This document shows positions 673 through 61,698 of a stretch of DNA of 64,000 bases, in pieces (the first letter of the stretch is position 1; each line of letters begins with the position of its first letter). The DNA is from Gemmatimonas sp. Its GTDB lineage: Bacteria > Gemmatimonadota > Gemmatimonadetes > Gemmatimonadales > Gemmatimonadaceae. A program made the position numbers and the translations under genes. The notes under the pieces are model-generated. The model was not told the DNA's origin and made no database searches. It worked only from the letters and a program-made list of their open reading frames with translations. Location: NCBI RefSeq assembly GCF_021298855.1, contig NZ_JAJTHI010000002.1, positions 1 through 64,000 of the forward strand, read 5' to 3'.

Positions 673-1779
673 ATGCCCACTTCCCTCGTGGTCGTACTGG
701 CGCTCGCGGTGGCTCTGGTCGCTCTGCCGCCGGCGCCGACCCGTGCCCAAGGCACACCGCCTGCGGCCGCCACCGTCCCGCGCGATTCGCTGGTGGCGCG
801 CCTTGCCGACCTGCGGCGCATACATACCCCCACCGGCATCGAGCTGCTGGAGCCGGTGCGCATCGATGGCACCACGCAGTGGGTGAATGTGCGCGGCAAG
901 CACCGCGACAACCCCGTGATCGTGATGATCCACGGCGGCCCCGGTACGCCCACGCTCTCCTCCGCGTGGGCCTACCAGGCGCCGTGGGAAGACTTCTTCA
1001 CGGTGGTGCACTACGACCAGCGCGGCGTGGGCAAGAATGCCGTGGGCGCCGATCGGGACGCTCTTGCCCCGACCCTGACCTTCGACCGGCTCGTGCTCGA
1101 TGCCGAGGCCATGGTGGCCTGGGTGCGCCAGCGGCTGGGGGTGGAGAAGGTGATCGTGATGGGGTACTCCTACGGCACCATGCTGGGCATGGCGCTCGTG
1201 CAGCGCCGGCCCGAGTGGGTGCATGCGTACGTGGGCGTGGGGCAGGTGAGCGGCAGCGGCGATGACTACCTGTATCGGAAGCTGCGCGCGCTGGCCACGG
1301 AAACCGGCAACCGCGAGGCGCTGCGCGAGCTCGACGCGATTGCACCGTATCCGCGACCGGGCGCCCCGGTGAGCACGGTGCTGCTCACGCGCAAATGGGC
1401 GCGCCTGTTCAACGGGGGATGGTACGGCAAGCCCACCTTCGACCTGCTCTTCAGCCTGCCGGAGTGGGCACCCGAATACACGGCCGCCGATGTGGCGGAG
1501 CAGCGCGCCGCCACGCAGTGGACCACGCGCACCCTCGTGGGGCGCGGGGGCACTCCGTTGCCGACCACGTTTGCCGTGCCGGTGGTGATCGTGCAGGGGA
1601 AACATGATCTGCACACGCCGTACGAACCGGCGCGCGATTACGTCGACCGCATTACGGCACCGCGCAAGCGGTTCGTGACGCTCGACTGGTCGGCGCACGT
1701 GCCGTTTCTCGAAGAGCCGGGACGTTTCCTGCAGGTGCTGCTGGACGAGGTCCGGCCGCTGGCGTTCGCGCCGAGGTGA
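673..1779 (+). CDS. Secreted alpha/beta hydrolase, proline iminopeptidase-like (S33)
   Basis: A 368-residue alpha/beta-hydrolase with an N-terminal signal peptide (hydrophobic residues 5-20, Ala-rich cleavage near 25). HGGPG at residues 87-91 is the oxyanion-hole motif typical of the prolyl aminopeptidase/S33 branch, followed by DQRGVG at about 115. The nucleophile elbow is GYSYG with Ser166; Asp312 (in GKHD) and His342 (in SAHVP) complete the triad. It probably acts in the periplasm on small peptides or esters; the substrate cannot be read from sequence. The ATG was chosen because it follows a TAAAAT box by 6 nt and begins the signal peptide. Its stop overlaps the GTG of the next gene, so the two are probably co-transcribed. 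Confidence 0.85.
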
Positions 1780-2681
1780 GTGACAGCCACCCGCACGCCG
1801 GCGATACCAGCCGGCACGCCGCGTGGGCCGCGGCCGTGGCGAGCGTGCTCTTCGGGGCGTCGGTGGTGGTCACGCGCTATGTCGTGCCGCAAACGACCCC
1901 GGTGGTGCTGGCGTTTCTCCGCTACGTGCTGGCCACGATCTGTCTGTTGGCGGTGCTGCAGCGCGCCGCCTTTCCCGTCATGCCCTGGCGCGACCGGGTG
2001 CAGGTGACCCTGCTCGGGGTGCTCTTCTTCGGCGTGTTCCCCTGGAGCTTCAGCGCGGCGCTCACGCACCTGCCGTCGGCGCCGGTGGCGCTGGTGGTGG
2101 CCACCATGCCGCTGGTGACGTTGGGCCTCTCGGTGTGGCGCGGGGTGGAACCGTGGCGCGCCCGCGCCGCGCTGGGGCAGGGGCTGGCCTTCGTGGGCCT
2201 GCTGATGGCGCTCTGGCCGAGCCCGGGGGCCGACGCCGTGCGGCCCGCCGCCGATGCGTGGCTGGGCTACGTGGAGATCAGCATCACGGTGTTGTGCGGG
2301 GCCACGTACAACGTGTGGTCACGCCCACTGCTCAGGCAATACGACGCCATGGCCGTGTCGGCGCAATCCATGCTGGCGGGCGCCGTGGCGCTGGCTCCGC
2401 TGGCCGTGGCTGAGGGCCTGTTCGCGCGCGTTTGGCAGGTGACGCCCCTGGGCTGGGCGGCCGTGCTCTTCCTTGGCGTGTGCGGCGGGGCGCTGGCATT
2501 CGGCCTGTGGATCTGGGCGTTGCGGCACTCGACACCGTCGCGCGTGGCGGTGTTTCTGGCGCTCAACCCCATCACGGCGATCGTACTGGGGGTGGCGCTG
2601 CTCGGTGAGCCGGTCACGCTGCGCCTTGCGCTGGCGCTGGTCACGGTACTGGCGGGCATTCAGCTGGCCTCACGCCGCTAG
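1776..2681 (+). CDS. EamA/DMT-family permease
   Basis: A 301-residue integral membrane protein of the drug/metabolite transporter superfamily. It has about ten hydrophobic segments arranged as two EamA repeats (roughly residues 14-145 and 160-298), each ending in a GxxLxGEPV- or LGVALLGEP-like segment. Such proteins export metabolites or amino acids at the inner membrane; the substrate is unknown. The GTG start overlaps the upstream hydrolase stop by 4 bp (GTGA), indicating translational coupling. One hypothesis is export of products made by the neighbouring peptidase, but nothing in the sequence proves it. Confidence 0.85.
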
Positions 2682-2793
2682 ATTGCGTCGCACTGTGCTC
2701 ATGCCTCCCCTGCCCCGCGCCATTTTCGGCCCCACGCGCGCCATCGTTCCCCTCACGCTGACGGCCGCTCGCCGCACCACGGAGTGCCGCTGA

Positions 2794-3405
2794 GTGCGCG
2801 TCGCCATCGTGGGGGGACCGGGGATCGGCAAGAGCACGCTCGTGCGTCAGCTGGGCGATCTCTATCGCAACGGCTCGTACGGCGAGGGAGAGCAGGGGGT
2901 ATGGGACCCGCGCGTGCTGGCCGACATCGAGGCCGGGCGCAATCCGGTGGGCGTGACCGCATACTTTGCGCGGCTGTACGACGCGAATTACCGCCATGCG
3001 GCCACCCACGACGAGCCCGGGGCGGTGGTGCTGGTGGAAGGGGCGCAGATCACCCTCGAAGCCCACATCGCCGAGTATCCGGTGGAGACGCACCCGGCGC
3101 TGCACGAGGTGGTGGGCATGGGCGCCCATTGGTGCCCGGATCGCACCATCGTGCTGACGTCGGGGACCGACACGATCGAGAAGCACATCCGGCTGCGCCG
3201 CCGTCCGCATGAGGAAGTGCAGCGCATGATTGAGCGGTTCCGGCTCATCGACGCGGAATTCCGGCGACTGGCGCCGCAGCACGCGGGGGCGGTGCTGGTG
3301 GACCGCGACGGCATGGAATTTCATACCCGCGAAGGGCTGCAGGCGGTCGCGGCGGCGGCGGGGCTGCCGCCGTTTCCCGAGATTCCGTACGAGCAGCTCG
3401 ACTGA
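2794..3405 (+). CDS. P-loop deoxynucleoside-kinase-like ATPase
   Basis: A 203-residue single-domain protein with a Walker A motif GGPGIGKST at residues 7-15 and an overall layout like small deoxynucleoside/AAA_28-type kinases. A VLVEGAQIT strand sits at about residue 72 and an arginine-rich lid-like segment (RLRRRPHEE) near 130. It probably phosphorylates a nucleoside or small metabolite in the cytoplasm. The GTG start at 2794 follows GGAG by 10 nt and puts the P-loop at the N-terminus, as expected. The gene lies 112 bp after the EamA gene and ends at a strong hairpin. Confidence 0.65.
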   Translation: MRVAIVGGPGIGKSTLVRQLGDLYRNGSYGEGEQGVWDPRVLADIEAGRNPVGVTAYFARLYDANYRHAATHDEPGAVVLVEGAQITLEAHIAEYPVETHPALHEVVGMGAHWCPDRTIVLTSGTDTIEKHIRLRRRPHEEVQRMIERFRLIDAEFRRLAPQHAGAVLVDRDGMEFHTREGLQAVAAAAGLPPFPEIPYEQLD

Positions 3406-3414
3406 CGACCGCCG

Positions 3415-3438
3415 GCGCGCTCCCGGTCGGGAGCGCGC
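3415..3438. terminator. Bidirectional terminator hairpin
   Basis: A perfect 10-bp stem (3415-3424 with 3429-3438) with a GGTC tetraloop lies between the convergent kinase and lipoprotein genes. There is no T tract on either side, so it may act with Rho or simply protect 3' ends. Confidence 0.55.
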
Positions 3439-3452
3439 GTGATCCGGTCACG

Positions 3453-4343
3453 TCAACGCACGGGGACGCGGCTGTGCTGCCACACGAAGCGCGATCCGGT
3501 GGCTGGATCGAGCCCCGGTACCAGCGTGCTCACGACCAGCGGCGTGCTCACGGTGACGGCGCGGCCCAGTTCCGCGTGGAACCGCGCGGAGACCAGATCA
3601 CTCACGGCCGCCACGTCCCGTACGCTGCTGTAGAGGCGCAGCGGCCCGGTGGGGGAGAGATTGAGCTGGGTCCAGGTGGCGGTGCGGTCGGCCAGCAGCT
3701 GGAGCGCGCCAGCGGCGTCGCGCGTGTACCCCGCGTCGCCGCCGGTCACGATACTGCGGGCCTTGGTTGCCCGCGGGATTACCCAGGCCTCGAGGGCGCC
3801 GTCGGCGACGGTGACCGGCACCACCGAGAAGGGGCGCCCACGCTTGTTCCAGGTGGGGCGCACGAGGACCGCCACGTCGCGGGCGAGCTTGGCGGCGCGC
3901 GCCAGGCGGGCGGTGTCGAGCGGTTCGGTGAAGCGCGGCCGGGCGCCATCGAGACGCACGAGCTGCAGGCGGCGTACGGTGGTGTACGCGCTGTCGATGT
4001 CGTACACGCCGCCCACCGGTACGCCATCGGCCGTCCGCTCGCACACGATGGCCCGCGGAGCCCGGGCCGCCGGCCCATAGGTGCCTTCGGCGCGCAGCCG
4101 GGCCACGGTGGCGGTGCACTGCAGCCAGAAGCTGACTGCCCGGGCGCGCAGGTCGGCCGCCGCGAACTGCTCGGCAAAGCCCGACGGCAGCCCCGAGGCG
4201 TCGGGGGCCGGGGCGGGCTCGGCGGGTGCGGCGCGCACTGGCACGGCCTCGGGCGAGGCCGCCGGTGTTCCGCCGGCGCAGGCGCCCACCACGAGCAGGG
4301 AGAGCACCGGCGAGATCAGACGACAGGCGCGACGCAGCGGCAT
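3453..4343 (-). CDS. Hypothetical lipoprotein
   Basis: A 296-residue protein with a lipoprotein signal (hydrophobic core then LVVGAC, Cys at about 22) followed by a Pro/Ala-rich linker to residue 50. The mature part is a mixed alpha/beta domain that I do not recognise; it contains a VCERTADGVPVGGVYDID segment and a stretch resembling a beta domain. It is probably anchored in the outer or inner membrane facing the periplasm. It is transcribed away from queD and converges on the kinase gene. No function is inferred. Confidence 0.6.
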   Translation of the reverse strand: MPLRRACRLISPVLSLLVVGACAGGTPAASPEAVPVRAAPAEPAPAPDASGLPSGFAEQFAAADLRARAVSFWLQCTATVARLRAEGTYGPAARAPRAIVCERTADGVPVGGVYDIDSAYTTVRRLQLVRLDGARPRFTEPLDTARLARAAKLARDVAVLVRPTWNKRGRPFSVVPVTVADGALEAWVIPRATKARSIVTGGDAGYTRDAAGALQLLADRTATWTQLNLSPTGPLRLYSSVRDVAAVSDLVSARFHAELGRAVTVSTPLVVSTLVPGLDPATGSRFVWQHSRVPVR

Positions 4344-4428
4344 GACAGGCGGGTAAGGGGGAGGCGCGTGCGAGCGCGATGGACGGACGGCCCAAACAAG
4401 GTAGCCGCAGGGGTCGAGAGACGCGTGC

Positions 4429-4434
4429 TACATT
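4429..4434 (+). promoter_or_regulatory. -10 box TACATT, leaderless queD start
   Basis: TACATT lies 5 nt before the ATG at 4440, placing the likely transcription start at the start codon. There is no Shine-Dalgarno before this ATG. Confidence 0.4.
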
Positions 4435-4439
4435 GACGC

Positions 4440-4823
4440 ATGTCTGCGTCCCGCCCCACCTCCGTCGAGTTGTACAAGCAGTTCACGGTGGAAGCCGCTC
4501 ACCGCCTGCCCAACGTCCCGCCCGGTCACAAGTGCGCGCGACTGCACGGACACTCGTTCGGGATCGAACTGCGTGTGCGCGGTCCGCTGGATCCCGCGCT
4601 GGGGTGGGTCATGGACTTCGCGGAGATCAAGACGGCCTTTCAGCCGCTCTACGACCAGCTCGACCATCATTACCTGAACGACATCCCCGGCCTGGAGAAC
4701 CCCACGAGCGAGGTGCTGGCCGTGTGGATCTGGGATCGTCTCAAGCCGGTCCTGCCGCTGCTGAGCGCGGTGGTGGTGCGCGAGACGTGTACGTCGGGGT
4801 GCGAGTACCGGGGTTCGGCCTAG
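4440..4823 (+). CDS. queD: 6-carboxytetrahydropterin synthase QueD
   Basis: A 127-residue protein of the PTPS/QueD family, which converts 7,8-dihydroneopterin triphosphate to 6-carboxy-tetrahydropterin in queuosine (7-deazaguanine) synthesis. Zinc ligands His21, His36 and His38 are present. The C32-x3-HGH arrangement is the signature of the CPH4-synthase group, and the [12 protein letters not shown] and C-terminal Glu motifs follow. Length is normal for QueD. No other queuosine gene lies nearby. Instead it precedes a TonB receptor and a lipoprotein, a context like zinc-responsive QueD paralogues, so it may be a spare copy expressed under metal limitation (inference). Confidence 0.9.
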
Positions 4824-4830
4824 ACCGATC

Positions 4831-4857
4831 GGCGCGTCGTGCGACGCGCCGCACTTT
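4831..4857 (+). terminator. Terminator after queD
   Basis: A perfect 8-bp stem (4831-4838 with 4843-4850) with a GTGC loop is followed by GCACTTT. It is 8 bp after the queD stop, separating queD from the receptor gene. Confidence 0.6.
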
Positions 4858-4892
4858 CATGATTAACCGTTCTCATTATGCTTCAACGTGTA
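4851..4892 (+). promoter_or_regulatory. AT-rich promoter/operator before the TonB receptor
   Basis: A 40-bp AT-rich island in otherwise GC-rich DNA, containing TGATTAACCG and CATTATGCT. TATGCT (4876-4881) could be a -10 box for a transcript beginning near the second ATG at 4893. The composition is what a Fur/Zur-type operator would need, but no clean palindrome was found. Confidence 0.35.
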
Positions 4893-7313
4893 ATGAGCGC
4901 CCCCTTCCGCTTTCTCGTTCGCGCCAGTGTCCGGCCGCTCGCACGTCGGTGCGCGGCGTTGACCGGAGCGGCGGCGGCCACCGTGATGACCATGACGGTG
5001 CCGCTCCAGGCGCAGGATACGCACGGCGCGCTGCGGCACCTGCACGGGGTGGTGGAAGCGGGAGAGAGTGGCCGCCCCATTCGCGACGCGGACGTGGTGG
5101 TGAGCTGGCGCCTGCGCACCGGCGACCGTGTGGCCGAGAAGGCGGCGCGCCAGCGCACCGACGGCAACGGGCGCTTCGACCTGCGTGATCTGCCACCGCA
5201 GGTGGTGAGTCTGCGCGTGCGGGCGCTGGGCTACGCACCGTTCGTCCGTGACGTGGACCTGCGTGACGCCGACCGCCTGCTCACCGTGCATCTCGACGTG
5301 GCCACGACGGTCCTGCAGGAGGTGGCCGTACGGGCGGACACGGCGCCGGAGCGGTTGTCGCGAGTGGCGGCAACCAGCACGCTCGATGCGCAAGCGCTGG
5401 CCGCCACGCGGGGCCAGACGCTGGGCGAGACCATCAAGAACCTGCCCGGTGTCACGGTCATCCAGTTCGGCCCCAGCATTGCCAAACCGGTGATTCGCGG
5501 CCTCAACTCGCAGCGGGTGCTGGTCATGAACGGCGGCCTGCGCCAGGAAGATCAGCAGTGGGGCACCGAGCATGCTCCCAACATCGACAGCTTCGAAGCC
5601 GACGCGGTCACGGTGGTGCGCGGCGCGGCCACGGTGCTGTACGGTCCCGATGCCCTGGGGGGCGTGGTGCGTGTGGATCACGCGGCGCTCCCCGACACGG
5701 GGGGGCTGCGTGGCACCGTGGCGCTCAATGCCTTCTCCAACAGCCGGCAGGGCGCCGTGTCGGTGGGCGTGCAGGGGGCGGATCTTTCGCTTCCGCGCAT
5801 CGGCACCACGGGGTACCGGGTGCGCCTCACCTCGCGCCTGGCCGGCAACGGCGGGGCGCCCGACTACTATCTCACCAACACCGGGTTCCGGGAGCTCAAC
5901 GGGAGCGTGGCGCTGGGGGTCGCGCGCGACTGGGGACGCGCCGAGGTGTCGCTGACGCGGTTCAGCACCGAGCTGGGGGTGTTGCGGCAGGCGCATGTGG
6001 GCAACGCCAGCGACCTGGCGCGGGCCATGAGCGGGGCCCCCCCCGACTCGGCGTTCAGCTACACCATCGGGCGCCCCAACCAGCGTGTGGCGCACACCAC
6101 GTTTCGCGTGCGCACCGTACGCACGTTCGCACAGGCCGGCGATCTCGAGGTGGTGTACGGGCTGCAGTACAACCACCGCCGCGAGTACGACAACCACGGT
6201 CCCCTGCGCTTCCGCAACGAACCGGCGTTCAACCTCAAGCTGTTCAGCAACGCGCTCGATGTGCGGTGGACACACCCGCGCTGGAAGGGATGGCGCGGCA
6301 CGGTGGGCACGAGTGCCATTGCGCAGGGCAACCAGACGCTCGGCAAGGCGTTCCTGATTCCCGGCTACGACCTGTGGCAGGGGGCGGTGTACGCGCAGGA
6401 AGAGCTGGCGATCGGGCGTCTGTCGATCAACACCGGGCTGCGCGGCGATGCCATTGCGCAGACCACGATTGCCTTTGCCGACGCGGGCATTCGCAGTCCG
6501 GCCGGCACGAAGTCGTGGCGCAACCTGGCGGGCTCGCTGGGCGCGGCGTACCTGGTGCGCGACGGGCTCGACGTGGGCGTGCGCCTGGCGCGGGCGTGGC
6601 GGCCACCCACCGTCAATGAGCGGTACGCGCAGGGGGTGCACCATGGCACAGCGCAGTACGAGCTGGGCGATGCGGAGCTCTCGAGCGAACAGTCGGTGGG
6701 CGTGGAGGGTACGCTGCGCTTCCGCCGTCGCACGGTGCAGGTGGATGCGGCGGCGTACTCCAACCGCGTGAACGGCTTCATCTACCTGCAGCCCACGCAG
6801 CCAATACAGACCATTCGTGGTGCCTTCCCGGGCTTCCGGTATGCCCAGGCCGATGCCCGCCTGCGTGGTGTGGAGCTGGCCACCTCGTACACCCCGCACA
6901 CGCGCGTGCAGATCACCGCGAACGGCACCGTGGTGCGCGGCACGAACCGGCGCACCGACGAACCGCTGTTCGACATGCCGGCCGATCGGCTCTCGCTCAA
7001 CACGCGCCTGCTGGGCGCGCGTGGTGGCGGTCAGGACCCGTCATCGTGGCACCTGGGGATGGGCACGCTGCTGGTGCGCCAGCAGGATGGCGTGCCCAAC
7101 GGCACCGTGTACACGCTGCCCACGGCCGGCTATGCGCTGCTGCAGCTCGAGGCGGGGATCCAGCGTTGGACCCTCCTGGGGCGACGCGCCGATATGTCAC
7201 TGTCGGTGAACAACGCCCTCGATACACGCTATCGCGACTACTTGAGTCGCTACCGGCTCTTCGTGAACGACGCCGGGCGGGATGTGGTACTGCGGCTGAC
7301 GATGCCGTTCTGA
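4878..7313 (+). CDS. TonB-dependent outer-membrane receptor (metal/metal-chelate type)
   Basis: An 811-residue receptor. A signal peptide ends near residue 45 (LQAQD). It is followed by a CarboxypepD-regulatory-like beta domain (about 53-140), a plug domain (about 145-265, with the segment RVLVMNGGLRQEDQQWG and VVRGAATVLYGPDALGG), and a 22-strand-type barrel ending in an aromatic residue (TMPF). The 'QEDQQWG..HAPNID' plug region resembles receptors for zinc, haem or iron chelates. The ATG at 4878 has no Shine-Dalgarno; ATG 4893 may be the true start if the transcript is leaderless. The downstream lipoprotein (62 bp away) is its likely surface or periplasmic partner. Confidence 0.85.
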   Translation: MLQRVMSAPFRFLVRASVRPLARRCAALTGAAAATVMTMTVPLQAQDTHGALRHLHGVVEAGESGRPIRDADVVVSWRLRTGDRVAEKAARQRTDGNGRFDLRDLPPQVVSLRVRALGYAPFVRDVDLRDADRLLTVHLDVATTVLQEVAVRADTAPERLSRVAATSTLDAQALAATRGQTLGETIKNLPGVTVIQFGPSIAKPVIRGLNSQRVLVMNGGLRQEDQQWGTEHAPNIDSFEADAVTVVRGAATVLYGPDALGGVVRVDHAALPDTGGLRGTVALNAFSNSRQGAVSVGVQGADLSLPRIGTTGYRVRLTSRLAGNGGAPDYYLTNTGFRELNGSVALGVARDWGRAEVSLTRFSTELGVLRQAHVGNASDLARAMSGAPPDSAFSYTIGRPNQRVAHTTFRVRTVRTFAQAGDLEVVYGLQYNHRREYDNHGPLRFRNEPAFNLKLFSNALDVRWTHPRWKGWRGTVGTSAIAQGNQTLGKAFLIPGYDLWQGAVYAQEELAIGRLSINTGLRGDAIAQTTIAFADAGIRSPAGTKSWRNLAGSLGAAYLVRDGLDVGVRLARAWRPPTVNERYAQGVHHGTAQYELGDAELSSEQSVGVEGTLRFRRRTVQVDAAAYSNRVNGFIYLQPTQPIQTIRGAFPGFRYAQADARLRGVELATSYTPHTRVQITANGTVVRGTNRRTDEPLFDMPADRLSLNTRLLGARGGGQDPSSWHLGMGTLLVRQQDGVPNGTVYTLPTAGYALLQLEAGIQRWTLLGRRADMSLSVNNALDTRYRDYLSRYRLFVNDAGRDVVLRLTMPF

Positions 7314-58568: not shown

Positions 58569-59723
58569 CTAGAGGTGAACGGGGTGGGCGCGCTGCTTCT
58601 CTTCCGGACGGCGGCGGAACCAGCTGGCCACGAGATAGAACTCGTCGAGGTCGTGCGTGGGGACGTCGGCGCCGGCGGGATCGGCCCCGGCGTACACCCG
58701 CTCGGCGAGCGCGTCGAACGCCGCCTGCTCGTCGGGGGTGCGCGGCGCGCGCACTTCGGCGCGCACGGTGCCGCGGCGCACGAGATACACCCACTCCACG
58801 TCGGCGTGCCCGATGGCATGATAGCGGAAGGTGAGGCGGTCGACGTTGGCATGGAAGTGCTGCACGCGTTCGTGCAGCCAGCGCACGAGGGCCAGTCGAT
58901 CGCGCAACACGCCGGCGCGTTCGAAGGCCAGCTCGCTCGCGGCGTGCTGCATGGCGTCTTCGAGGAGCCGCACGGGCCCATCGCTCCGGCCCTCGAGAAA
59001 GGTGCGCACATCGGCGGCGGTTTCGCGGTAGCGCATCGCGGTGCCGGCGCCGATGCACGGCCCGGCACAGGTGCCCAGGTCATGGCGCAGGCACCCGGGC
59101 GCGCGCGCCCGCGCGGTGGCGCGGGGCCTGGTGGCGGGGTCGTCGGCAAACCAGAGGGTGCTGCCGCGGGCCCGGCCGGTGCCGCGCACGGCGTCCTCGA
59201 GGGTGCAGTCGCGCAGCCCGGTGGCTTCGGCGAGTGCGCGCACGGCCTCGCGCACGCGCGCCACGCGGCGGAACGGCCCGAAGAGCGCCACGGCCGCGGG
59301 ATCGTCGGAGCGGGGCACCACGCGCAGCCCGGGCACCGGTCCGCCGGTGAGGGCCACGTAGGCGCGTGGCCACTCGTCCATGACCATCATGGTGTTGAAG
59401 TGGGGCCGGTATTGCTTGATGAGGCGCAGTTCGCGCAGCAGGGCGCCAAACTCGGTGTGGGTGTACTCCCACTCGATGTGAAAGGCGTGGCGCAGGATGC
59501 GCGCCGCCTTGTTGCGGCGCCCGGTGGCGCGGAAGTAGGAGAGCAGCCGGGTGCGCAGCGCGCGTGACTGGCCCACGTAGATGACGGTGCCGGTGGGGCC
59601 GAGCATGCGGTAGACCCCGGGCCGGTTCTCGACGCCCTGTCGCACGAGCGCCCGCAGCTGCTTGCGGTGGGCGGGGGTGGTGTGGGGCGGTTTGACGTGC
59701 AGGCGGGGAATGGGGTCCGGCAT
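58569..59723 (-). CDS. UvrC N-terminal-half homologue (GIY-YIG nuclease, Cho-like)
   Basis: A 384-residue protein carrying the UvrC N-terminal GIY-YIG nuclease (PGVYRMLGPTGTVIYVGQSRALRTRL and TEFGALLRELRLIKQYRP) and the Cys cluster CLRHDLGTCAGPC. It also carries a UVR helical hairpin (LEDAMQHAASELAFERAGVLRD), but lacks the C-terminal endonuclease/HhH part. It therefore resembles Cho, which makes only the 3' incision in nucleotide excision repair. ATG 59723 follows a TAGCTT -10 box by 7 nt (leaderless). It is longer than E. coli Cho (about 295) owing to the extra C-terminal region from 290 onwards. Confidence 0.8.
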   Translation of the reverse strand: MPDPIPRLHVKPPHTTPAHRKQLRALVRQGVENRPGVYRMLGPTGTVIYVGQSRALRTRLLSYFRATGRRNKAARILRHAFHIEWEYTHTEFGALLRELRLIKQYRPHFNTMMVMDEWPRAYVALTGGPVPGLRVVPRSDDPAAVALFGPFRRVARVREAVRALAEATGLRDCTLEDAVRGTGRARGSTLWFADDPATRPRATARARAPGCLRHDLGTCAGPCIGAGTAMRYRETAADVRTFLEGRSDGPVRLLEDAMQHAASELAFERAGVLRDRLALVRWLHERVQHFHANVDRLTFRYHAIGHADVEWVYLVRRGTVRAEVRAPRTPDEQAAFDALAERVYAGADPAGADVPTHDLDEFYLVASWFRRRPEEKQRAHPVHL

Positions 59724-59730
59724 ATCCGGC

Positions 59731-59736
59731 AAGCTA
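59731..59736 (-). promoter_or_regulatory. -10 box TAGCTT of the UvrC-like gene
   Basis: TAGCTT on the minus strand lies 7 nt before the ATG. No clear -35 or ribosome site. Confidence 0.4.
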
Positions 59737-59757
59737 TGGACATGGTTCGGTATGTGC

Positions 59758-59789
59758 GACACGCCGCGACACGCCGCGACACGCCGCGG
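59758..59789. repeat. Three copies of a 10-bp unit
   Basis: ACACGCCGCG repeated three times in tandem, immediately upstream of the UvrC-like promoter. Confidence 0.65.
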
Positions 59790-59822
59790 GGCGCTCCCGC
59801 TCACCCCGTTCGCTGCTCTCTT

Positions 59823-60042
59823 CGGGGGTGGCCGGGCGCGCTCCGGCGCTCCGCGCCCGGGCGCGCCGGCGTCACCCCCTCAGGGATCCGCTCACGGGGC
59901 GGCGGGGCGCGCCGCGGCTGCACTCGCTCGGCGTTTCCTGCGCCCAGGCAAAGCATACCCGATCCAGCGGTGGGGCCCCGCCGCCCGAGCGAGCGGCTCT
60001 CTGAGGGGGCGACGCCGGCGCGTCAGCGCACGGCCGCCCCCG
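59823..60042. repeat. 220-bp nested inverted repeat, possible structured RNA
   Basis: Three tiers of complementarity nest around a centre near 59940. The outer tier is 59823-59839 with 60026-60042 (about 14 of 17 paired); the middle is 59862-59883 with 60001-60022 (21 of 22); the inner is 59897-59908 with 59975-59986 (12 of 12). The result is one long imperfect hairpin. It lies downstream of the photolyase gene and upstream of the UvrC-like gene (both minus). No ORF or known RNA motif was recognised. Confidence 0.65.
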
Positions 60043-60135
60043 AAGCAAGCCGCGAGTCGGGTGAGCGGGTGCCCCACTGCGTGTCGCGGCGGCCCTGCAG
60101 GTGCCCTACCACGCGTCCCGGCGGCCCCTCACGTC

Positions 60136-61698
60136 TCAAGACTCGTACGTGAGCGACTCGCGAAACTCGCGCGCCTGACGACGGATCTGCACCAGCTCCT
60201 GCTCGGCCATGCCGTCGAGGTGCTTGGTCATCATGCGCATGCGCGGGTGCCTGGCAAACCGCTCCCGGTGCTGGGCCATGAAATCCCAGTAGAGAAAATT
60301 CATGGGACAGGCGTCGGGTCCCGTGCGCTGCTTCACGTCGTAGCGGCACTGGCCGCAGTAGTTGCTCATGCGGTTCACGTAGGCGCCACTGGCCACGTAC
60401 GGCTTGCTGGCCAGCGCCCCGCCGTCTCCCCAGGTGCCCATACCCGCCACGTTGGGCAGCTCCACCCACTCGTAGGCGTCGGTGAACGCGGCCCAATACC
60501 AGCGCGACAGGGCCGCGGGCTGCACCCCCAGCATGGTGGCGAAGTTGCACTGCACCATGAGCCGGCCAATGTGATGCGTGCGGCCGTAGTCGCGCACCTG
60601 GCGAATGGTGTCGGAGAGGCAACGCATTTCACACGCACCGTGGTGCGCGCCTGCATACGCCTCGCCGTCCGGCGCCCAGAACCACATCGGCAATGCGAGG
60701 GGCGCCTCGAGGGCGTTGGCCGTGCGCAGCCCCGGCATGAGCTGCCAGTACATGCCGCGGATGTACTCGCGCCAGCCCAGAATCTGTCGAATGAACCCCT
60801 CGGCGCTGGCAATGGGCACGTGCCCCTCGCGATACGCGCGCTCCGCGCGTTTCACCACCTCGAGCGGATGCAGCAACCCCACGTTGAGGATGCTGGAGAG
60901 CGTGCTGTGCAGCAGGTCGGGCGCCCCATGCACGAGCGCATCTTCGTAGGGGCCGAACTCGGGGAGCCGTTCAACGACGAACCGTTCGAGCCACGCCTTG
61001 GCGTCCGCGCGCGTGACGGGCAATGCGAAACGATCCACCGACCCCCAGCGCCCCTTCCAGCCGGAAACCCGTTCCATCTGCTCGCGCGTGATCGCGTCGG
61101 GCTCCACGCGCCATACGTCAGGTACCGCGCGGTTCTTCGGCCACGGCTTGCGATTGTCGGCGTCGAAATTCCAGTCGCCACCGCTGGGCGTGCCGTCGGC
61201 CTCCATGAGAATGCCGTGCTGGCGCCGCATCTCGCGATAGAACCACTCCATGCGGTATTCCTTGCGCCCGCGTGCCCACGTGGCGAACTCCTCGCGCGTG
61301 GCGAGGAAGCCGCGATCTTCCCGCAGCACGAGCGACACGCCGGCGTCGCGAAGGAGCATGCGCGCACGATCGAGTTCGTCCACCATGTCCTGCTCCCGCC
61401 CTTCGGTGGCGACGACCCGCGACGCCCCAAGCTCCCGGGCCACCGACGCGAGCCCCTCGGCGTACGACGGCGCGTTGCGCAGCAACACGCGATAGCCCGC
61501 CGCTTCGAGCGACGCGGCGAAGTGGCGCATGGCCGAGAGCAGCAGGACGAGCTTCTGCCGGTGCCAGGGCAGCGATGCGCCCTTGGCGACCGACTCGAGC
61601 AGCAGCACCACGACATCCTCGCGCGGTTCGCGCGGAATGTTGGCCACGGCGCGGGAGCACTCCCACGGGGCGACGAAGGCAAGCGTTGGACCGGACAC
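60136..61698 (-). CDS. FeS-BCP-type cryptochrome/photolyase
   Basis: A 520-residue photolyase-related protein of the prokaryotic (6-4)/FeS-BCP group (PhrB/CryPro). It has an N-terminal antenna-type Rossmann domain (about 1-140, VVATEGREQDMVDEL) and a helical FAD domain. Four cysteines are placed as in PhrB for a 4Fe-4S cluster (CEMRC region, YCGQC, DACPM). WREYIRGMYW and the NCNFATMLG-like MVQCNFATMLG segment are conserved. It would repair UV photolesions in blue light, sensible for a sun-exposed or phototrophic organism. Confidence 0.88.
   Translation of the reverse strand: MSGPTLAFVAPWECSRAVANIPREPREDVVVLLLESVAKGASLPWHRQKLVLLLSAMRHFAASLEAAGYRVLLRNAPSYAEGLASVARELGASRVVATEGREQDMVDELDRARMLLRDAGVSLVLREDRGFLATREEFATWARGRKEYRMEWFYREMRRQHGILMEADGTPSGGDWNFDADNRKPWPKNRAVPDVWRVEPDAITREQMERVSGWKGRWGSVDRFALPVTRADAKAWLERFVVERLPEFGPYEDALVHGAPDLLHSTLSSILNVGLLHPLEVVKRAERAYREGHVPIASAEGFIRQILGWREYIRGMYWQLMPGLRTANALEAPLALPMWFWAPDGEAYAGAHHGACEMRCLSDTIRQVRDYGRTHHIGRLMVQCNFATMLGVQPAALSRWYWAAFTDAYEWVELPNVAGMGTWGDGGALASKPYVASGAYVNRMSNYCGQCRYDVKQRTGPDACPMNFLYWDFMAQHRERFARHPRMRMMTKHLDGMAEQELVQIRRQAREFRESLTYES

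What the first reader, a model, noticed from the sequence alone, without database searches (positions are those of the whole stretch)
59823..60042. 220-bp three-tier inverted repeat: candidate structured RNA or cruciform
Nested arms of 17, 22 and 12 nt pair almost perfectly around one centre, far beyond a usual terminator, with internal loops between tiers reminiscent of long hairpin RNAs such as 6S RNA. It lies between two minus-strand DNA-repair genes and has no coding signal. A 10-bp triplicate repeat lies just beside it.
Basis: seen in the sequence. Interest (0 to 1): 0.6.

Follow-up and report, generated by a model that had tools for sequence, protein, structure and literature searches.

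The report
Dispersed hairpin repeat pair in Gemmatimonas
The big hairpin is real, but it is not a one-off RNA gene: it is one of many copies of a previously unnamed, roughly 140-base palindromic repeat, here present as an inverted pair, that is scattered between genes of Gemmatimonas bacteria in the way other bacteria carry REP or ERIC repeats.

Summary
The inverted repeat is real and larger than reported: about 330 bp (59756-60097), z about -10 on either strand. It is not a unique structured RNA. It is a head-out inverted pair of a ~140-bp hairpin unit that recurs in this genome (8 units) and in 16 of 30 genus genomes (up to 18 per genome). No hit was found in the other genera of the order that were sampled, viruses or plasmids. 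The '10-bp triplicate' is a tandem iteration of the unit's own 5' end motif.

The same pair sits between phr and the uvrC-like gene in seven Gemmatimonas genomes. Five others have a 55-70 bp spacer there. Units lie mostly just downstream of genes, often just past intrinsic terminators, and are rare in divergent intergenic spaces.

Stem covariation is strong, but G-U pairs are no commoner than A-C mismatches, pairing at one orthologous site comes and goes, and one copy has lost its core. This fits DNA-level arm homogenisation (template switching) better than a conserved RNA. There was no Rfam match and no 6S match.

Best reading: a non-autonomous REP/ERIC-like interspersed palindrome whose mobilising enzyme was not found. 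The genus's RAYT carries a different, short REP. It is a new family of a known kind.

The parts
59766..59929 (+). Unit A: ~140-164 bp hairpin repeat unit, 5' end motif outward (towards the uvrC-like gene)
   Evidence: CM R1 hit, 86.7 bits, E 4e-14 (it was in the training set), and BLAST paralogues in the same genome
59956..60097 (-). Unit B: inverted second copy, 5' end motif outward (towards the phr stop codon)
   Evidence: CM R1 hit, 103.3 bits (in the training set)
59756..59788 (+). Tandem triplicate of GCGACACGCC, an iteration of the unit's conserved 5' end motif (GTGYGCGCGAnACGCC)
   Evidence: D2; the same motif ends nearly all units and is also iterated at the L063/L141 and L127 sites
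60065..60128 (.). Two imperfect 32-bp tandem copies that duplicate the outer end of unit B
   Evidence: D1
59930..59955 (.). Short unconserved spacer between the two units; its length varies between orthologous pairs
60139..61698 (-). Flanking gene upstream of the pair: DPRP/FeS-type photolyase-like (phr)
   Evidence: Pfam DPRP 7.9e-56
58569..59804 (-). Flanking gene downstream of the pair: GIY-YIG + UVR motif, uvrC-like ORF (true start probably ~59723)
   Evidence: Pfam GIY-YIG 4.5e-07, UVR 1.1e-05; orthologues align from residue ~22-30

Best explanation
The feature is an inverted (head-out) dimer of a non-autonomous interspersed palindromic repeat confined to Gemmatimonas. Each unit is a ~140-nt hairpin made of a conserved 5' end motif (GTGYGCGCGAnACGCC), a variable but self-complementary outer stem, a conserved core (CGCTCACCCCGTTCGCTGCTCTCTTCGGGGGTGGCCGnGCGC ... 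GCGCCGGCGTCACCCCCTCAGGGATCCGCTCACGGGGC) with fixed bulges, a variable apical stem-loop, and a 3' end GGGCTGCATCG. Shown here: multiple copies, a fixed dimer geometry, clade restriction, vertical inheritance at some sites and absence at the same site in relatives, and a bias to gene 3' ends next to terminators. Inferred: the units spread in the past as hairpin DNA, probably moved by an enzyme acting in trans and recognising the fixed core bulges and end motif. They survive where they do little harm, downstream of genes. Their arms are kept matched largely by replication template switching, which produces the covariation. Today most copies are probably inherited passengers that may act passively as 3'-end hairpins or cruciforms.
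For: Own-genome copies on other contigs. 21 of 41 relatives have DNA matches, in some cases at chance-like scores. The CM finds units in 16 of 30 genus genomes but, among 151 genomes of the order, only in this genus. A core pattern in GTDB hits only four Gemmatimonas or Gemmatimonadaceae-type MAGs, and none in viral contigs or plasmids. The pair is present at phr-uvrC in G000, G015, G003, G005, G008, G017 and G042, and absent with a 55-70 bp spacer in G014, G010, G006, G009 and G007. The own-genome C58 pair has empty counterparts in G003, G017, G012 and G042. At topA one relative lacks the unit and another has a copy with its core deleted. Gene context: 10 convergent, 2 divergent, 25 tandem; 25 of 30 single units have the 5' end facing a stop codon, orthologous sites not merged. 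Intrinsic terminators lie in the 5' flank of 8 of 47 units, the 3' flank of 2, and 1 of 47 shuffled. G-U pairs do not exceed A-C mismatches (11 v 16 in the outer stem). Template switching as a source of compensatory stem changes is published (PMC8794818).
Against: No target-site duplication could be defined, because intergenic flanks have diverged too far. No mobilising enzyme was found: the only Y1 transposase in the genus is flanked by a different short REP and is absent from the genome with most units. Copy number is low (up to 18) compared with hundreds for typical REPs. The conserved core bulges imply that some recognition function is, or was, under selection.
Confidence: 0.72

Rival explanations
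1. A structured RNA element: each unit is transcribed as the 3' end of the upstream gene (or as a free small RNA) and works as a long hairpin, for example protecting the mRNA 3' end, stopping Rho, or binding a protein at the conserved internal loops.
For: Strong covariation on the unit strand; conserved asymmetric internal loops; most units have the 5' end facing the stop codon of a gene, usually within ~120 bp.
Against: Several units lie just past a canonical intrinsic terminator and so should be mostly untranscribed. There is no excess of G-U over A-C. Pairing of the outer stem lapses in G019, G023, G014 and G024 at one orthologous site, and G024 lost the core. Many members of the genus have none. 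No Rfam match. In the window unit A precedes the uvrC-like start, not a stop codon.
Confidence: 0.17
2. REP/REPIN proper: units are mobilised by the RAYT (Y1 transposase) found in the genus.
For: Hairpin units in inverted pairs, extragenic; a single-copy Y1_Tnp in 8 of 30 genus genomes, 5 of them unit-rich.
Against: No unit near any of the eight RAYT genes. These RAYTs are flanked by GGGGTCAGAGTC/GACTCTGACCCC or a related repeat, not by units. G042 has most units but no Y1. The unit is far larger than a REP.
Confidence: 0.06
3. A single-locus cruciform with a local role (for example a replication or repair signal between the two repair genes).
For: The pair is conserved at phr-uvrC in seven genomes.
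Against: The same unit lies beside unrelated genes (aconitase/AhpC by the translated flanks, topA, miaB-like, pyrophosphatase and others) and is absent from this site in other members of the genus.
Confidence: 0.03

Closest known systems
REP / REPIN / BIME (GTAG- and CGTC-tagged repetitive extragenic palindromes)
   Same: Extragenic palindromes, multi-copy, in inverted dimers, preferring gene 3' ends, species-limited; some known families lack a dedicated transposase (PMC3733652)
   Different: REPs are 20-40 bp; this unit is ~140 bp with several stems, fixed core bulges and a variable outer stem; copy number <20; not linked to RAYT
ERIC / IRU-type elements (from general knowledge)
   Same: A ~127-bp imperfect palindrome between genes, no coding capacity, restricted to a clade
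   Different: Different clade and, as far as read, unrelated sequence; here regular head-out dimers and a hypervariable but complementary outer stem
MITEs with long terminal inverted repeats
   Same: The inverted pair resembles a MITE with ~150-bp terminal repeats and a short core
   Different: Each 'TIR' is itself a complete hairpin and also occurs alone; no target-site duplication or partner transposase found
6S RNA
   Same: Long hairpin with internal loops
   Different: No covariance-model match at E up to 10 in the whole genome; multi-copy and patchy
Integron attC sites
   Same: ~120-140 nt imperfect hairpin, structure more conserved than sequence, sits after a gene stop codon
   Different: Ends are GTGYGCGCGA / TGCATCG, not the RYYYAAC/GTTRRRY R boxes; inverted pairs beside ordinary chromosomal genes, no cassette array seen

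Membership tests
REP/REPIN | Short (20-40 bp) palindrome with an unpaired GTAG or CGTC tag | tested here: not met
   Unit is ~140 bp; its conserved end is GTGYGCGCGAnACGCC
REP/REPIN | Cognate RAYT gene flanked by the repeat | tested here: not met
   No unit near the eight Y1 genes; they carry another repeat
Interspersed extragenic palindrome (general kind) | Many dispersed extragenic copies in one genome | tested here: met
   8 units in G000, 18 in G042
Interspersed extragenic palindrome (general kind) | Single-strand hairpin potential beyond chance | tested here: met
   z about -10 for the pair; individual units fold as single hairpins
Interspersed extragenic palindrome (general kind) | Presence/absence at orthologous sites | tested here: met
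   phr-uvrC, C58 and topA sites
MITE | Target-site duplication | tested here: inconclusive
   Flanks too diverged to place the junction
MITE | Autonomous element sharing the terminal repeats | tested here: inconclusive
   ORFs between paired units that were scanned are AhpC/TSA or unassigned, no transposase; not all loci scanned
6S RNA (RF00013) | Covariance-model match | tested here: not met
ERIC/IRU | Sequence match to the enterobacterial consensus | not tested
   Consensus not available in the tools; the core pattern occurs only in Gemmatimonas-type genomes
attC | Conserved R boxes (RYYYAAC/GTTRRRY) at the ends | tested here: not met
   Unit ends as aligned and read by eye
attC | Integron integrase in the genome | not tested
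   No search made
Structured RNA | Transcript | not testable with these tools
   No expression data

The most novel reading that the evidence does not exclude
The unit is a previously undescribed mobile hairpin whose conserved bulged core is recognised as folded single-stranded DNA by an unidentified enzyme. It inserts next to transcription terminators in a fixed orientation, and its outer stem is rewritten by template switching, giving RNA-like covariation with no RNA function.
Probability: 0.2. Interest if true: 0.65.

Novelty: new member of a known kind. Interest (0 to 1): 0.36.

Why it matters
It names and models a repeat family that is likely to be mis-scored as a structured RNA in covariation-based RNA searches. 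Strong covariation here comes without G-U intermediates and lapses at an orthologous site, which makes the family a natural test of how far DNA template switching alone can imitate RNA-structure conservation. If a mobilising enzyme were found, it would add a long-hairpin class to the known REP/RAYT systems.

Tried and rejected
6S or another Rfam RNA: no match. Unique cruciform: other copies found. RAYT-driven REP: RAYT genes carry a different repeat. attC: end motifs do not fit. Plasmid or viral origin: no matches. Terminator function for the window copy: no terminator-like site in 59600-60250, and several other units lie after an existing terminator. Group II intron, prompted by the GTGYG start: rejected on size and on the absence of an evident catalytic domain V, read by eye only. 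A first count seemed to show a strand bias in mismatches (12 G-T v 50 A-C); it was driven by a fixed core mismatch and vanished when counted on alignment columns. Target-site duplication search: inconclusive. Literature search for a described Gemmatimonas palindromic repeat found none.

Full report
Observation. The inverted repeat is present and larger than described. Within 59600-60300 the repeat finder gives arms 59772-59792/60071-60091 (90%), 59790-59839/60026-60075 (80%), 59851-59893/59991-60033 (84%) and 59897-59908/59975-59986 (100%) around one centre. The reported 220 nt folds at z = -9.3 and -7.6 on the two strands. The extended 391 nt folds at z = -10.0 and -10.5. The direct triplicate GCGACACGCC is at 59756-59788, and a 32-bp imperfect tandem duplication lies on the other side at 60065-60128. 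Rfam gave nothing up to E = 1 over 2 kb. 6S gave nothing in the whole genome at E up to 10.

It is a repeat. A DNA search of the window's own genome returned further copies on contigs C57, C58 and C4, several of them themselves inverted pairs. Relatives in the genus have many more. Aligning 40 copies defined a unit of about 140 bp. It has a 5' end motif GTGYGCGCGAnACGCC, an outer stem of variable sequence, and a conserved left core. An apical stem-loop of variable length follows, then a conserved right core, the other half of the outer stem, and a 3' end GGGCTGCATCG. Each unit folds by itself into one long hairpin. In the window, unit A is 59766-59929 (+) and unit B is 59956-60097 (-), with 5' ends outward. 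The 10-bp triplicate is the 5' end motif of unit A repeated in tandem. The same motif is repeated, with other periods, next to units at other sites (L063/L141, L127).

Distribution. A covariance model of the unit finds matches in 16 of 30 genomes of the genus: 8 in G000, 18 in G042, 17 in G017, 14 in G008, 12 in G005, and none in 14 genomes, including some that are 99% complete. Among 151 genomes sampled from the order, only genomes of this genus match (with stricter filters). A core pattern over the GTDB collection hit only contigs of four Gemmatimonas or Gemmatimonadaceae-type MAGs. Viral contigs and plasmids gave no match.

History at individual sites. The inverted pair sits between phr and the uvrC-like gene in G000, G015, G003, G005, G008 and G017, and in G042 as judged from the flanks of its 4539969-4540399 pair. 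In G014, G010, G006, G009 and G007 the two genes are only about 55-70 bp apart. The own-genome pair on C58 is also in G015, while G003, G017, G012 and G042 align straight across the junction. At topA, single units occur in G041, G013, G019, G023, G014 and G010. G045 has none there, and G024 keeps the outer stem but has lost the core. No clean target-site duplication could be read, because the intergenic flanks are too diverged.

Where units sit. With simple ORF calls, 43 unit clusters (orthologous sites not merged) divide into 25 tandem, 10 convergent and 2 divergent gene arrangements, with 6 undecided. In 25 of 30 single-unit clusters the unit's 5' end faces the stop codon of the neighbouring gene. 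Intrinsic-terminator-like hairpins with T tails are in the 5' flank of 8 of 47 units, in the 3' flank of 2, and in 1 of 47 shuffled flanks. At topA the unit follows a terminator-like hairpin directly. These units should be poorly transcribed.

Covariation and what it means. On the 40-unit alignment, 15 of 34 pairs change on both sides. The covariation score is 0.270, against 0.093 ± 0.007 for shuffles and at most 0.084 for slid partners. This is strong structural covariation. Three facts speak against reading it as RNA selection. G-U cells are not commoner than A-C cells in the outer stem (11 v 16) or overall once columns with a fixed wobble are set aside (16 v 21). At the orthologous topA site, G041 and G013 have perfect stems of different sequence and G010 a nearly perfect one, while G019, G023, G014 and G024 have several mismatches. 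One copy has lost its core altogether. Template switching in replication is a documented source of multi-base compensatory changes in hairpins (PMC8794818) and would explain the arm matching. It does not explain the conserved asymmetric bulges of the core, which suggest recognition by some factor, now or in the past.

Mobiliser. A single-copy Y1 transposase (RAYT-like) is found in 8 of 30 genus genomes. No unit lies near these genes, which are flanked by a different repeat. Perfect copies of that short REP, GGGGTCAGAGTC...GACTCTGACCCC, occur in eight genomes, most of which also have the Y1 gene, but not in G000, G015 or G042. G042, with the most units, has no Y1. No enzyme can therefore be assigned.

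Verdict. The RNA interpretation is only partly supported. The most likely nature is a non-autonomous interspersed hairpin repeat, comparable in kind to REP/REPIN dimers (PMC3733652) and in size to ERIC (general knowledge). It fails the tests for REP proper (size, tag, RAYT linkage). No description of a palindromic repeat in Gemmatimonas was found in the searchable literature; much of the subscription literature is not in that library.

Noticed in passing
L176-L183 (RAYT loci); genus-wide: A single-copy RAYT-like Y1 transposase in 8 of 30 Gemmatimonas genomes, flanked by short REPs around GGGGTCAGAGTC or a related repeat; up to 19 perfect inverted pairs of that REP per genome, sometimes beside the 140-bp units.
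   Followed up: partly
L141 (G005:C1:762500-772000), 809-6726: In G005 a full phr gene is followed ~3.9 kb later by a second copy of its last ~139 codons, directly before the unit pair; the stretch between holds unassigned ORFs and an ACR_tran-like fragment. Looks like an insertion flanked by a long direct repeat, or an assembly artefact.
   Followed up: partly
window 59756-59788; L127 ~2360-2440; L063/L141 5' flanks: The 5' end motif of the unit is iterated in tandem about three times at independent sites with different periods (10 and ~17 bp).
   Followed up: partly
L127 and L140: An AhpC/TSA gene is bracketed by inverted units in both G042 and G005; the flank search suggests a unit site shared across the clade downstream of a gene whose C-terminus reads like aconitase.
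   Followed up: partly
window 58569-59804: The uvrC-like gene holds only GIY-YIG and UVR motifs in 411 aa and is probably annotated too long at its 5' end; Pfam shows no C-terminal UvrC domain.
   Followed up: no
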